Shown here piece after piece: positions 632 through 62,848 of a stretch of 64,000 nucleotides of DNA. A model generated the notes under the pieces. That model had not been told where the DNA came from. It made no database searches and saw only the letters and a list, made by a program, of their open reading frames with translations. The DNA comes from Nannobrachium achirus (Eukaryota > Chordata > Actinopteri > Myctophiformes > Myctophidae). How positions within the stretch are numbered: position 1 is the stretch's first letter; every line of letters begins with the position of its first letter. Location: NCBI GenBank assembly GCA_963921795.1, contig OY997659.1, forward strand, positions 28,412,790 to 28,476,789, given 5' to 3'. The position numbers were made by a program, and so were the translations under genes.

Positions 632-852
632 ATAAGGTCACTGTCGGGCAGAAATCTCATATCTCCCAAGTTTCAAATGTGTTCGTTTTTCCATAAAGCA
701 AAGCCCTGCTTCATCATACAAGACCGTCGCTCAAAACTAGTGAAAATAGCCTATCTACAAGCACACAACGCCTCATAGATCGACCATTTTCAATAGTTTA
801 AATCATTTTTAAAATGATACATACAAAACCAACAGTTTTGGACATACAAGGG
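632..852. mobile_element. family C MITE
   Basis: The ends are CACTGTCGGGCAGAAATC and GATCCACCCGACAACTACG, an inverted pair. A worn module is at 738-800. The text GCAAAGCCCTGCTTCATCAT is shared with the copy at 31422. Confidence 0.75.
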
Positions 853-984
853 ATCCACCCGACAACTACGATAAATAGTGTACCCGCGTTGTGAGCTTGT
901 AGATCTGCTATTTTCGGTGTGTGCCGCCACCGTACAACAAAATATAGATTCGGGCTGCCACCCTATAGTCAGACATACAGTAAG

Positions 985-1450
985 CAGGGGTCTTCAACGT
1001 TTTCAGGCCGGGGACCCCCAAACTGATGGAGAGATGGAGCAGGGACCCCCTACCACCTCGTAGGATGGGGGGGTGGGGGCTACGACATATCGTAGGGTGG
1101 GGGGGTGGGGGCTACGCCTACGACATATTTTTTATTTTAAACATGTACAAGTTACAGCGAGCAGGGTGGGCCGTACCACTACCATTTCTAAATATACTAC
1201 TTATTAACTGAGAACCAATGTCAATAATATCAACAATCTGTCAATTGCATAGTAATCATGTATTCAAGCTATTCAAAATGGATAGAATCATGATTTATTT
1301 TTTAACATAAATGTGAAAAATAAAAAAATAAAAACTTTTTTTGAAATCTTTTTTTTTTTTTTTTTTTTTTTTAAGCAATAATTTCGCGGACCCCCTGCAG
1401 TACCTCCGCGGACCCCCTAGGGGTCGCGGACCCCCTGTTGAAGACCCCTG
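985..1450. mobile_element. family F hAT MITE without module
   Basis: The ends are CAGGGGTCTTCAACG and GTTGAAGACCCCTG. The interior has two GTAGGGTGGGGGGGTGGG repeats and a T-run but no hairpin module. A lone module arm lies 70-100 bp upstream (882-917). Confidence 0.75.
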
Positions 1451-1672
1451 CAGTAGAGTACAGTAGGCATGCAGAGACAACAGACATGCTAACTTTGCTA
1501 AGTGTGTCATCTAAGGCTTCTTCCATTGCCTGGCACTTTCTACAGTAGTTGCTATATAAATTACATGTAGCATTCTGGATGTATGTATCATATGGCATGC
1601 ATGAATTGCCCTCATTACAAATATATGTAGGACACGCTCACTCATGCATGTACTGATGTACACACGCTCTCG

Positions 1673-1811
1673 CTCTCTCTCTCTCTCTCTCTCTCTCTCT
1701 CTCTCACACACACACACACACACACACACACACACACACACACACACACACACACACACACACACACACACACACACACACACACACACACACACACACA
1801 CACACACACAC
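1673..1811. repeat. (CT)n(CA)n microsatellite
   Basis: A CT run of about 32 bp is followed by about 107 bp of CA. The open frames here are repeat artefacts. Confidence 0.95.
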
Positions 1812-2013
1812 CTGTCGGGAAGAAACCTCATATCTCCAACTTTCAAATGTGTACGTTTTTTCGTAGACTGTAGCACAAAACTAGTGAAAATAGCAGATCT
1901 ACAAGCACACAACGCCTCGCACCATCGGCTATTATCACTACTTTAAAACATTTTAAAAATGATAAATACAAAACGAAAGGTTTTGGACATACAAGGTTTC
2001 CACTTGACAACGA
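1811..2013. mobile_element. family C MITE
   Basis: It begins CTGTCGGGAAGAAACCTC directly after the (CA)n run and ends TCCACTTGACAACGATG. A worn module is at 1880-1936. Confidence 0.7.
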
Positions 2014-2599
2014 TGTACTGTATATAATGTATCACCCACACACTGTACATACATACGAACTGCTCCCGCTGCACCAGGTGCAGTATAGTATTATTATTAA
2101 CCATCTCCATTTGATTTGACTCTCAATTGAATTTTCAGAGCTATCGACAGGCAAAACTGGAAGGGGGGGTTGGTGTGTGGGGGGGTGGGTGGGTGGGGGG
2201 GGAGGGTTTGCTGCTCTGTCAGGAGAGGAGATTGATTTCCAGTCAGGGAAGTCATATATACTGTATACACACATTCCTCCATTCCACTCTCAGTCTAACG
2301 CCGAACCGTCTGGGGTTATTTGAGGGCAGTGCCTATTATTTTTGGGTGAATATTGCTCGCCGACTACACCGAGGTCACACCCCTAGTGGAGCTGAAATAA
2401 AGCATTATGTGGGAACTGGTTTTGTTGTGTGTTTTTTGAACCACTCCAAAGGAACATGTCTGGGCTGTGGTTTCTAGAGAGTGTCTCCACCTCACCCACT
2501 GGAAACCCAAGCTGCCCCATGACCCAGTCTGAGTCTAACACCCAACGCTGCTACACACAGTAGAATCCTGAGCGTTAATGGAACTCTGATGTGTGTGTG

Positions 2600-2726
2600 C
2601 ATATATATATATATATATATAAATTTATATATATATATATATATATATATATATATATATATATATATATATATATATATATATTTATATATATATATAT
2701 ATATATATATATATATATATATATAG
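2600..2726. repeat. (TA)n microsatellite
   Basis: Nearly pure TA, with AATTTATA interruptions. Confidence 0.95.
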
Positions 2727-60605: not shown

Positions 60606-60652
60606 CTAGCTCTGGTCCATAGAAGGAGAACTTCTAACGCCATGGACCAGAG
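60606..60652. repeat. hairpin with 14-bp arms
   Basis: TAGCTCTGGTCCAT is mirrored by ATGGACCAGAGCTA. The loop holds a smaller palindrome, AGAAG-GAGAA-CTTCT. Confidence 0.7.
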
Positions 60653-61030
60653 CTAAGTAAAGGGCAGGCCAGGCATGTATCTGACTGACATTATTGAAAA
60701 CCAGTAGCCTTTGAAACAATGATTTCCCCATTCCCTAAGCTACATAAAGGGTCCAGTGGTTATAGGCTACTTATTAAGTTCTCTGACTACCTGTACCACC
60801 ATACAAAGCTACCAGAAGCAAGGATAATGTCTTAAATCCATTCCTCATGCGCTCCCAAAGCGCGCCCGATGGCCCGCGACACCGTCGTACGATGGACGGA
60901 GTATAAAATAAATCAGGCTACTTTAGAACGAGAAAGAAAATTCCCCTGGTGACTGCGCGAGGTTTACGCACAAAGTTACACTTAAACTCATGACACCAGT
61001 CAGAAATACAATTTAGTGGGTCCTACTCAC

Positions 61031-61072
61031 AAGATAAGCGATGCGCCTGTCAAGATCATGGGGGTCCCCCAT
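61031..61072 (-). CDS. candidate alternative first coding exon of arhgap6 (14 codons)
   Basis: On the minus strand an ATG in strong start context (CTGGCCATGG) opens a 14-codon frame reading MGDPHDLDRRIAYL. It runs straight into a consensus splice donor, GTGAGT. An in-frame TGA lies upstream, so this ATG would be the start. The exon ends in phase 0, which fits the phase-0 acceptor of the first certain arhgap6 exon at 49934. The sequence just upstream (61085-61200) is GC-richer than its surroundings and could hold a promoter. ARHGAP6 is known to use more than one N-terminus, but I do not recognise this peptide. The exon could instead belong to another transcript or be chance. Confidence 0.42.
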
Positions 61073-62097
61073 GGCCAGATGACATCGATAGGTTCACCCA
61101 ACGGACGCGCACTTTAAATAAATGAAGACAAACGCGCTCTCGCTCTCTCTTCTCTGCAAAGTGCAAAGACCACGATCCGAACGGCGGGTTTTCTGAAGAG
61201 ATGTCAAAGCCTGGCGCTACATGCTTTTACAAAATGTTGTCTGTGTCATCAACATCCTAATGTGCCCAGGAGGAGGACTGACTGAGGAGTCGTACACACG
61301 TTCCTTCACCACCACAGATCTGCTAAAGAGTAGACGAAATGCAATCACCACCATGGGATGGGCGGGGCGCATGTCATGGGAGATAGAGTAGATGATTCCA
61401 GTCTGTTTAGTCACATCGTCGATAAATATCTAAATAAAACAGTCAGACCAAAAGTCTGGGAAACGGTTAATAAAACTATTTATGCTATAGTATTACAATA
61501 CTGCCATAAACCATTAATTGCTGACCACGTTTTTATCCTCTTAGGTTACTTATTGACTATGTGTCTTAAGACAAGTGATTTGGCACTGTAATAAAATGTA
61601 GCTGAATTGAATTGACTGGGCTGTTAATTGTTAAAAGGACAGAACAGGTTGATGATTTGGCTATGATGAATCAAGAAGGTTCCATACATTACACATGATG
61701 ATGTTTTCCATTCACAAATCAAACCTAATGTATTCAAACAGTTCCCAAATTTGACTTTAAATACAATAATTGTGTTAATTACTGTAACTAAATGTACAGA
61801 ACAAATCACGATGGCACATGTGGCTGATTGAATAATTGATTTATTGAAAAAGGAAAGTACAGTTAAATACAAGGTCTGCTACAAGCATTGTAAACCCAAG
61901 AAAGCCTATGGCTTGTTTCCATTGCGGTCCTTTGTACTCTTTTCATCAAATTATGATAATTATGCACTGTAGGCCTATACTGTACATCCTATTGCTTTCA
62001 ACTGAAGCAGGGTCCATCTCAGGATGAACAAGCTGCAAGTACATTTCATGCAGTTTTATTATGTACTATAGCAATTGCTATGGCGTATGCTATAAAA

Positions 62098-62293
62098 CAG
62101 TGGTTCTCAAAGTGGACTCCAGGGACTCTGTGGATTCTTTCAGGGGGGGTCTAAATTGACCCATATACGTCTGTAACTCTGACAGTACAAATGACACCAA
62201 ATGAACCCGTTGAACATGTTGGGTTCATTTGGTTCCATTTGTACACTGTCAGAGTTAAGGGGAGACCTTGAAATCTGAACGTTTGAGAAACTG
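62098..62293. mobile_element. hAT MITE with a different internal hairpin, exact 8-bp duplication
   Basis: It is flanked by CTATAAAA at 62090-62097 and 62294-62301. The ends are CAGTGGTTCTCAAAG and CGTTTGAGAAACTG. The centre is a palindrome built on CAAATGAACCC and GGGTTCATTTG with outer arms TGACAGTACAAAT and ATTTGTACACTGTCA. It is not the common module. Confidence 0.88.
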
Positions 62294-62790
62294 CTATAAA
62301 ACATGTTGAGTATTATAATGTTCACCCAAGTCAAAATCTATAGCTCCACTGGGAGCAGTGTGTGGGATGCATTTTTGCCTCCTGGAGTGCTGGAATGAGC
62401 TAGTTTGTTATCACAGTGCAGTGTGCTGATATATTCAGCAAGCCCTTGCCTTATAAACAGGAAGCAATCTGTTAGACAATAACAAACCAACTGGAAGGCG
62501 ATGTCAGGTATAGAGGAATCATGACCCCGTTTTTGCAGTCTTACTGCACTGTTCATTTAACCACTGGAACCCCAGCATCCTGTGTGCAACATCATCCTCG
62601 CTCATCTCAGCAATCATTGCAGGGTCTAGATTACTTGAGCAATAGTTTAAACTCTGGTCTTAACTAATAGTTCAATAAATTCAAATACATAAATTGACAA
62701 ACACTTCACCACTTTCACCCTGGCTTCCCTATGTTTGGCAGGTCATAATAGGAATATATATATATATATATATATATATATATATATATA

Positions 62791-62848
62791 TATCTACAAG
62801 CTCATGGTCACGATGAGACAAGTTGTGAGCTTGTAGATCGTCTATTTC
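62791..62848. repeat. hairpin module copy beside a (TA)n run
   Basis: TATCTACAAGCTCATGGTC and GTTGTGAGCTTGTAGATCG are the two arms. The AAATAGC base of the left arm has been replaced by (TA)n. Confidence 0.65.

What the first reader, a model, noticed from the sequence alone, without database searches (positions are those of the whole stretch)
738..62848. One palindromic hairpin module lies at the core of at least seven unrelated small-transposon families
The arm AAATAGCAGATCTACAAGC (then TC, A/G, CA, A/G, CGC) and its mirror occur more than 25 times as full or near-full palindromes and about 20 times as single arms. The host elements have different ends and bodies: A (40782-40861), B (45891-45968), C (2906-2994), D (43033-43071), E (25535-25607, 44096-44176, 54482-54556), F (29131-29187) and J (39656-39724). 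A few copies stand outside any recognised element (23836, 62791). Shared ancestry of the hosts cannot explain this, because nothing else in their bodies aligns. The module could be a tiny fold-back parasite of other transposons, a common structural part needed for mobilisation, or a module spread by gene conversion.
Basis: seen in the sequence. Interest (0 to 1): 0.88.

Follow-up and report, generated by a model that had tools for sequence, protein, structure and literature searches.

The report
One hairpin shared by many transposons
A 69-letter DNA hairpin, whose arms occur hundreds of thousands of times in this genome, sits inside several different kinds of small jumping genes; for one of them it clearly arrived because one jumping gene landed inside another, for some others this is likely, and for the rest we do not yet know.

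Summary
A covariance model finds 28 places in the window (12 of them built the model). In the 1.66-Gb genome the 19-bp arm has 703,639 matches at up to 2 mismatches, against 4 for the reversed control.

A, B, D and F are hAT-type elements with 8-bp target duplications. E and an inner element "P" have TTAA at both ends. In F the module lies in a nested TTAA element. F and J, and A, K and two E-related copies, align beyond the module. B, C and D share only the module and stay unexplained.

Best explanation: the module is the palindromic core of a TTAA-type MITE group that was nested into other MITEs and copied with them, plus one transfer without transposition (32,655-32,799). Inner arms differ between families with compensation (E against C, 7 of 10 pairs) but not between E copies (0 of 19): founders begin as good palindromes, copies decay. 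No autonomous source was found, and a loose test for enclosing TTAA ends barely beat its control.

The parts
40788..40856 (.). module (69-bp palindrome) in host A
40550..41064 (.). host A: hAT-type element, ends CAGTG / CAGTGGTGG (6 of 12 alike), 8-bp TSD CTCAAAGG (8 of 8)
45893..45961 (.). module in host B
33187..33724 (.). host B: hAT-type element, TSD GTTTAGGG (8 of 8), TIR 11 of 12; contains a single arm at 33310
2916..2984 (.). module in host C; palindrome extends 10 bp further out on both sides
43045..43063 (-). arm in host D
42782..43301 (.). host D: hAT-type element, TSD GAAGCCAG (8 of 8), TIR 11 of 12
25506..26092 (.). host E: TTAA at both ends, a module near each end (25537-25605, 25962-26030); its alignment with 51416-51981 starts and stops on TTAA on both sides
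51416..51981 (.). host E, second copy, TTAA at both ends, modules 51477-51545 and 51904-51950
43654..44218 (.). host E, third copy, TTAA then CCCATT at both ends, modules 43668-43736 and 44099-44173
   Evidence: one search tested the right end one base off, the TTAA was read
28989..29471 (.). host F: hAT-type element, TSD GTTTAAAG (8 of 8), TIR 12 of 12
29087..29278 (+). P: TTAA-flanked insert inside F, ends CAACTTGAACC / CCACTTAAATC, holding the module 29136-29183
48791..49204 (-). host F, second copy, TSD GGCTACAG (8 of 8), with P insert 48922-49098 (GTAA at one end, TTAA at the other)
9922..10118 (.). P-like TTAA..TTAA element with one arm (10006-10024), outside the F copy at 10222-10642
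39658..39722 (.). module in host J; its right flank matches F's P end, with TTAACCGCTTGAACCC at 39754 on the - strand
30871..30939 (.). module in host K (hAT-like left end CAGTGGTTCTCAAAG), tail shared with one A flank and with 43425 and 55254
32655..32799 (.). E-type fragment with a second module (32687-32755) inside an A element; by eye no TTAA and no 8-bp repeat at its edges
23780..23934 (.). 'outside' module copy 23841-23876 between two TTAA sites; right end CCACATGACCC

Best explanation
The module is a 69-bp near-perfect palindrome that forms the core of a group of small TTAA-flanked transposons (called P and E here). Shown: E copies have TTAA at both ends with a module 10-58 bp inside each end; P has TTAA ends with the module about 45 bp from its nearer end in F; and P lies nested inside the hAT-type element F, which has then moved as a unit. 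Inferred: A, J and K got their module the same way, because they keep a P-type end 32-45 bp from it. Also inferred: a second route, copying of a module-centred piece by template switching, which gave the E-type piece in an A element and perhaps the modules of B, C and D. The hairpin is kept at the level of families but not of single E copies, so founder copies begin as good palindromes, either because only intact hairpins amplify well or because template switching makes them perfect, and later copies decay.
For: TTAA ends: the alignment of two E copies begins and ends on TTAA on both sides (TTAA starts at 0.6% of positions). The P end TTAACCRCTTKAACCC is enriched beside modules: 7 of 67 module sides at <=2 mismatches, 0.64 expected from 2000 random places (the motif came from these copies, so partly circular). 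Found outside the window: L014 1407-1593, L035 1456-1673 and L039 5561-5752 are TTAA..TTAA with 11-12 of 14 end letters alike and enclose the module, in F sequence (both sides in L014 and L035, one side in L039). Exact 16-mer in the genome: 15,374 against 0 (G form), 945 against 1 (T form). hAT hosts with 8 of 8 duplications: A, B, D, three F; elsewhere two CAGGGACGTGCTGG elements holding C (L023, L025), an F (L025), a D-type (L035) and a TAGGGATGGG element (L031). F-J flank: z 7.8 and 6.9 against 60 shuffles. Tail held out: K plus two E-related flanks find one A flank at 1.1e-4. Transfer without transposition: 32,655-32,799. Compensation between families, not between E copies. One T-form end (L052) runs straight into a C element, a possible link of C to P, not followed.
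Against: B, C and D show no P tail. A loose test for TTAA ends with >=9 of 14 letters alike around modules gave 13 of 174 units against 28 of 600 random places (7.5% and 4.7%); only 5 of the 13 rows (4 elements) have P ends. The same test for hAT ends gave 14 of 174 against 15 of 600, and 4 of the 14 look accidental. Only 18 of 1440 flank pairs between families passed the cut, and up to about 10 could be chance. In A the four bases at the P-type end are CAAA or TTAC, not TTAA. P outside F rests on 9922-10118 and weaker cases. Of 20 places with the T-form end (from the first 100 listed of 945), 13 have an arm at <=6 mismatches within 130 bp (7 the left arm; no control for this cut) and 7 have none, two of which (L061, L062) are TTAA..TTAA elements without a module; in several the bases before TTAA are alike too, so there TTAA is part of a composite. 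Ten of 116 listed loci with a piggyBac-type transposase showed no TTAA ends with TIR >=10 of 14. 33 of 80 module units in the 200-kb sample lie near none of eight known host bodies.
Confidence: 0.42

Rival explanations
1. Module-level transfer: the hairpin itself, with some flank, is copied from one transposon into another by replication template switching or gene conversion, as in the fold-back model proposed for the Angel MITE, without nested insertion.
For: E-type piece inside an A element, module near its middle, no TTAA or 8-bp repeat seen at the joins; B, C, D share only the module; flanks next to the module are symmetric with family-specific letters (>=8 bp with one mismatch allowed in 14 of 78 palindromes, 3.2% in mixed pairs); model described in PMC12628747, section headed 4, first part.
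Against: Only one clear chimera. F has the P ends with TTAA, and A, J, K have P-like ends, which simple hairpin copying would not bring.
Confidence: 0.27
2. The hairpin is a working part: a signal that some factor needs for amplification, or that protects the element, so families that hold it are the ones that reach high copy number.
For: Outer arm letters conserved, inner arms changing but staying paired between families; 69 bp in 41 of 78 palindromes; in the window, with the module masked, each of 8 repeat clusters has a member within 150 bp of an arm (42 of 53 pieces; 23% of the window lies that near).
Against: In the random sample repeated bins (hit >=5 times) lie within 300 bp of an arm in 35%, all bins in 18%, and many repeats have no module near, so the window is not typical. 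Template switching alone can give compensated hairpins (PMC8794818 abstract). Two of five pair measures do not stand out. No factor is known.
Confidence: 0.18
3. Ordinary descent: all hosts are branches of one old element whose core survived while ends and bodies diverged.
For: F-J flank homology and A-K-E homology; hAT ends in A, B, D, F and hAT-like ends in J, K.
Against: TTAA and hAT elements use different target duplications; a TTAA element is nested in F; B, C, D do not align with the others outside the module.
Confidence: 0.1

Closest known systems
V highly conserved domain shared by fish SINEs and the MER6 MITE (PMC6887750: abstract and section 2.4 read)
   Same: One short conserved core found in elements of different classes; spread by riding on a DNA transposon's burst.
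   Different: There a SINE body was joined to mariner ends; in what I read it is not called a palindrome. Here the core is a palindrome shared by hAT-type and TTAA-type MITEs.
Angel fold-back MITE of zebrafish (known from PMC12628747, section headed 4, first part; the original paper not seen)
   Same: Single strands pair with themselves; proposed insertion through local homology.
   Different: Here a 69-bp core lies inside elements with their own ends; the sequence of Angel was not compared.
piggyBac-type elements (PMC10813416 and PMC2874221, passages)
   Same: TTAA duplication; E ends read CCCAT (both ends of one copy, one end of another), one of four end motifs listed; piggyBac has 13-bp TIRs plus 19-bp internal repeats, like a 19-bp arm at some distance from the end.
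   Different: P ends read CCACTT or CAACTT; no transposase linked; I know of no such palindrome in piggyBac (recalled).
hAT MITEs (features from PMC2874221, passage)
   Same: A, B, D, F: 8-bp duplications and CAGTG- or CAGGG-like ends.
   Different: In F the module lies in a nested TTAA element, so it is not part of the hAT body there.
Template-switch mutation that makes or mends hairpins (PMC8794818, abstract and start of the text)
   Same: Explains compensated changes in both arms without selection on function.
   Different: Here compensation is seen between families and not between copies of E.

Membership tests
hAT superfamily (hosts A, B, D, F) | 8-bp target duplication | tested here: met
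   8 of 8 in one A, one B, one D and three F, 7 of 8 in one more A; nothing at >=7 of 8 in the other 24 of 31 regions scanned
hAT superfamily (hosts A, B, D, F) | short TIRs beginning CAGTG or CAGGG | tested here: met
   (the scan asked for such ends with one mismatch; one end begins TAGTG in B, CAATG in D). The start motif is recalled, the 5-27 bp length is from PMC2874221
hAT superfamily (hosts J, K) | 8-bp target duplication | tested here: not met
   none in 35 (J) and 120 (K) end pairs; one hAT-like end seen in each, so not filed as members
hAT superfamily | hAT transposase in an autonomous relative | not tested
   no search made
piggyBac superfamily (E, P) | TTAA target duplication | tested here: met
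   two E copies exact, P 29087-29278 and 9922-10118; a third E copy read: three other loci; 48922-49098 has GTAA at one end. A loose scan over 174 units was little above its control
piggyBac superfamily (E, P) | TIRs with a CCC-type start at both ends | tested here: inconclusive
   E 43654 has CCCAT at both ends; 25506 has CCCAT at one end and GGATT at the other, 51416 TCCAT and GATTT; P begins CCACTT, CCACAT or CAACTT
piggyBac superfamily (E, P) | linked piggyBac transposase | tested here: not met
   10 of 116 listed transposase loci read, none with TTAA ends of TIR >=10 of 14; where I could tell, modules there resemble C, D or F copies
Angel-type fold-back MITE | whole element is one inverted repeat (recalled) | tested here: not met
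   symmetric extension beyond the module is 15 bp or less, but for one odd 20-bp case; hosts measure about 190-590 bp
Known structured RNA | match to an Rfam family | tested here: not met
   0 matches at gathering threshold in the window

The most novel reading that the evidence does not exclude
The hairpin is a transferable amplification signal, a parasite or helper of transposons: it passes between unrelated transposon families as a folded single strand, is made perfect at each transfer, and lets its new host reach high copy number.
Probability: 0.15. Interest if true: 0.88.

Novelty: new variant of a known kind. Interest (0 to 1): 0.6.

Why it matters
Small non-autonomous transposons are normally grouped by their ends; here one core, with about 0.7 million arm matches, links groups that use different target duplications. 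It gives a countable case for asking how short cores pass between transposons (nesting, template switching or selection), because hairpin and host body can be dated apart. It also warns that repeat libraries built by consensus may merge or mis-split such families.

Tried and rejected
Relatives elsewhere: three exact-pattern scans of viral contigs gave 0 (for the module, 22 for host A). Genome contigs gave 12 matches, in bacterial and archaeal records, to an 18-letter pattern in 257 Gb; my own estimate for chance is about 30, so they are not relatives. Rfam: nothing. A text search for four letter strings (two of the module, two of host A) gave one paper on Theileria, listing only.

Module as an insertion with its own target duplication: by eye no direct repeats at its edges.

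Module native to piggyBac transposase genes: looked promising from positions, but the flanks gave no element ends and several modules there resemble C, D or F copies.

'Every repeated family carries the module' (window) was rejected as a general rule.

Ongoing arm-to-arm repair within copies: not seen in E (0 of 19 low-frequency changes compensated); in the small A and C sets 3 of 16 and 4 of 17 were compensated, which may be subfamilies; T42 0 of 1. The 41 copies used include tandem duplicates in L044 and L046 and loci picked for an exact arm or a transposase, so they are not a random sample.

Empty hosts: none clean. The D copy near 7,755-8,100 that keeps only GAAAATAGCTATTTC, and B copies at 16,104-16,430 and 48,119-48,467 that keep GCTATTTTCACAATG, read more like hairpin deletions. 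A genome count of the collapsed form did not complete.

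Full report
What was checked. The arm AAATAGCAGATCTACAAGC and its mirror occur 67 times in the window at up to 5 mismatches, against 0-3 in five simulated sequences. A covariance model of 12 full-length copies finds 28 places, the 12 included. When the genome search answered, the arm gave 351,999 forward and 351,640 reverse matches at up to 2 mismatches in 1,658,514,493 bases, with 2 and 2 for the reversed control. 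Twenty 10-kb stretches chosen only by coordinate hold 33 palindromes and 47 single arms.

Anatomy of the module. The commonest length is exactly 69 bp (41 of 78 palindromes in the loci then held, which were not all random): two arms of 34 around one base. In 12 window copies (7 of them E) the outer 19 bp are 86% alike between families, the inner 15 bp only 58%, but within a copy the inner arms are 82% complementary. Counting pairs on these 12 gives 88.2% standard pairs, 24 cells changed on both sides (shuffled mean 11.5, none of 500 shuffles as high) and a covariation score of 0.184 against at most 0.070 for slid versions; the number of pairs with a change on both sides, 9, was reached by 48 of 500 shuffles and further pair types by 318 of 500, so not every measure stands out, and related copies can exceed shuffles without structure. 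With 41 copies the contrast is weaker but the same in direction (inner 0.80 within, 0.66 between; outer 0.905 and 0.873). Rare changes inside family E are not compensated (0 of 19), while differences between family majority sequences often are (E-C 7 of 10, A-C 4 of 7, C-B 4 of 7, but E-A 3 of 8 and A-D46 1 of 8). This fits founders that are good palindromes and copies that decay.

What the hosts are. Scanning 31 regions for hAT-type ends with duplicated 8-mers gave exact duplications for A (40550-41064), B (33187-33724), D (42782-43301) and three F copies (10222-10642, 28989-29471, 48791-49204), and 7 of 8 for a further A copy; 24 regions gave none. J and K show one hAT-like end each and no duplication. 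E is different: two E copies align from TTAA to TTAA, and a third has TTAA with CCCATT at both ends. C has its own ends (near CGTTGTCGGGTGGAAACC) and in two other loci lies inside an element with CAGGGACGTGCTGG ends and 8-bp duplications. A TAGGGATGGG element with duplication ACCGTGAC is a further host (L031). As a control, exact 8-mer duplications around hAT-like ends were found for 14 of 174 module units and 15 of 600 random places, and 4 of the 14 look accidental; TTAA pairs with alike ends for 13 of 174 and 28 of 600. Random places can fall in the same elements, so these controls are strict, but they mean that only the rows with a recognisable end sequence count.

What lies outside the module. 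F and J share their flank for about 40-65 bp (z 7.8 and 6.9). In one search, 18 of 1440 pairs between families passed the cut; up to about 10 could be chance. A model of flanks 43425, 55254 and K finds the A flank 30302 at 1.1e-4, and the first two alone find it at 0.0021; between the F/J group and this group only about 16 bp are alike, TTAACCRCTTKAACCC, at E 1.2-2.2 in one direction and 0.08-4.6 in the other. That 16-mer has 11 matches at up to 2 mismatches in the window against 0-1 in six simulations. Exact genome counts are 15,374 (G form, control 0) and 945 (T form, control 1). In F it marks a TTAA-flanked insert of about 190 bp that holds the module: window 29087-29278, and L014, L035 and L039, in F sequence on both sides (L014, L035) or one side (L039). 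So F is a hAT element with a nested TTAA element, and its copies have different 8-bp duplications, which means that it moved as a unit. Other F copies have P without the module or only a remnant, and one F relative (985-1450) seems to lack P (by eye). For 20 of the 945 T-form places, 13 have an arm at up to 6 mismatches within 130 bp (7 the left arm, 6 the right arm only), and 7 have none; two are TTAA elements without a module, and one (L052) runs straight into a C element.

Chimera. One A element (32393-32999) has its own module at 32576-32619 and, about 35 bp further on, an E-type piece (32655-32799 by BLAST) with a second module and E flanks on both sides; by eye the joins carry no TTAA and no 8-bp repeat. 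This is one case.

Negative results. B, C and D show no P tail. Host copies without any module are rare and unclear. Ten of the 116 listed loci with a piggyBac-type transposase did not show the expected element. In the random sample, repeated sequence is only about twofold enriched near modules (35% against 18%), and repeats far from any module exist. Of 80 module units there, 33 are near none of eight known bodies.

Reading. I take the module to be the core of a TTAA-type MITE group that was nested into hAT-type MITEs and carried along, with some direct copying of hairpin-centred pieces. This is shown for F, likely for A, J, K, and not shown for B, C, D. The comparison that fits best is the V domain, which joined a fish SINE and the MER6 MITE (PMC6887750, abstract and section 2.4); for the copying step, the model proposed for Angel (PMC12628747, section headed 4, first part) and template-switch hairpin repair (PMC8794818, abstract). 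My paper searches around palindromic, nested or shared MITE cores (titles and abstract starts seen) listed no report of this case, but the library lacks most subscription journals.

Noticed in passing
L016:600-765: Tandem array of a 25-bp unit containing ACAGCTTGTAGATCTGCTGTG, an arm-like sequence turned into a minisatellite.
   Followed up: no
window 7755-8100: D-type copy in which the module is reduced to the palindrome GAAAATAGCTATTTC.
   Followed up: partly
L061, L062: TTAA..TTAA elements of 117 and 141 bp with CCACTTTAACCC-type ends and no module.
   Followed up: no
L052:60-240: A T-form P end that runs directly into a C element with its module.
   Followed up: no
G000:C2:71.34-71.85 Mb: Sixteen of the 116 listed piggyBac-type transposase matches lie within half a megabase, 15 of them without an internal stop.
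   Followed up: no
window 20142-20527: 130-bp tandem unit whose sequence also follows some piggyBac transposase loci and recurs across the sample.
   Followed up: no
L032:1-10000: Long repetitive array with units containing GGTTCCATGGTGTAACGGTTAG, which looks tRNA-like (recalled, not tested).
   Followed up: no
window 36689-38261: Reverse transcriptase remnants in two frames (Pfam RVT_1).
   Followed up: no
window flanks at 30302, 30871, 40788, 43425, 55254: Next to the module the tail reads GCTATTTGAAAATAGC or close to it, a second small palindrome of the same letters.
   Followed up: no
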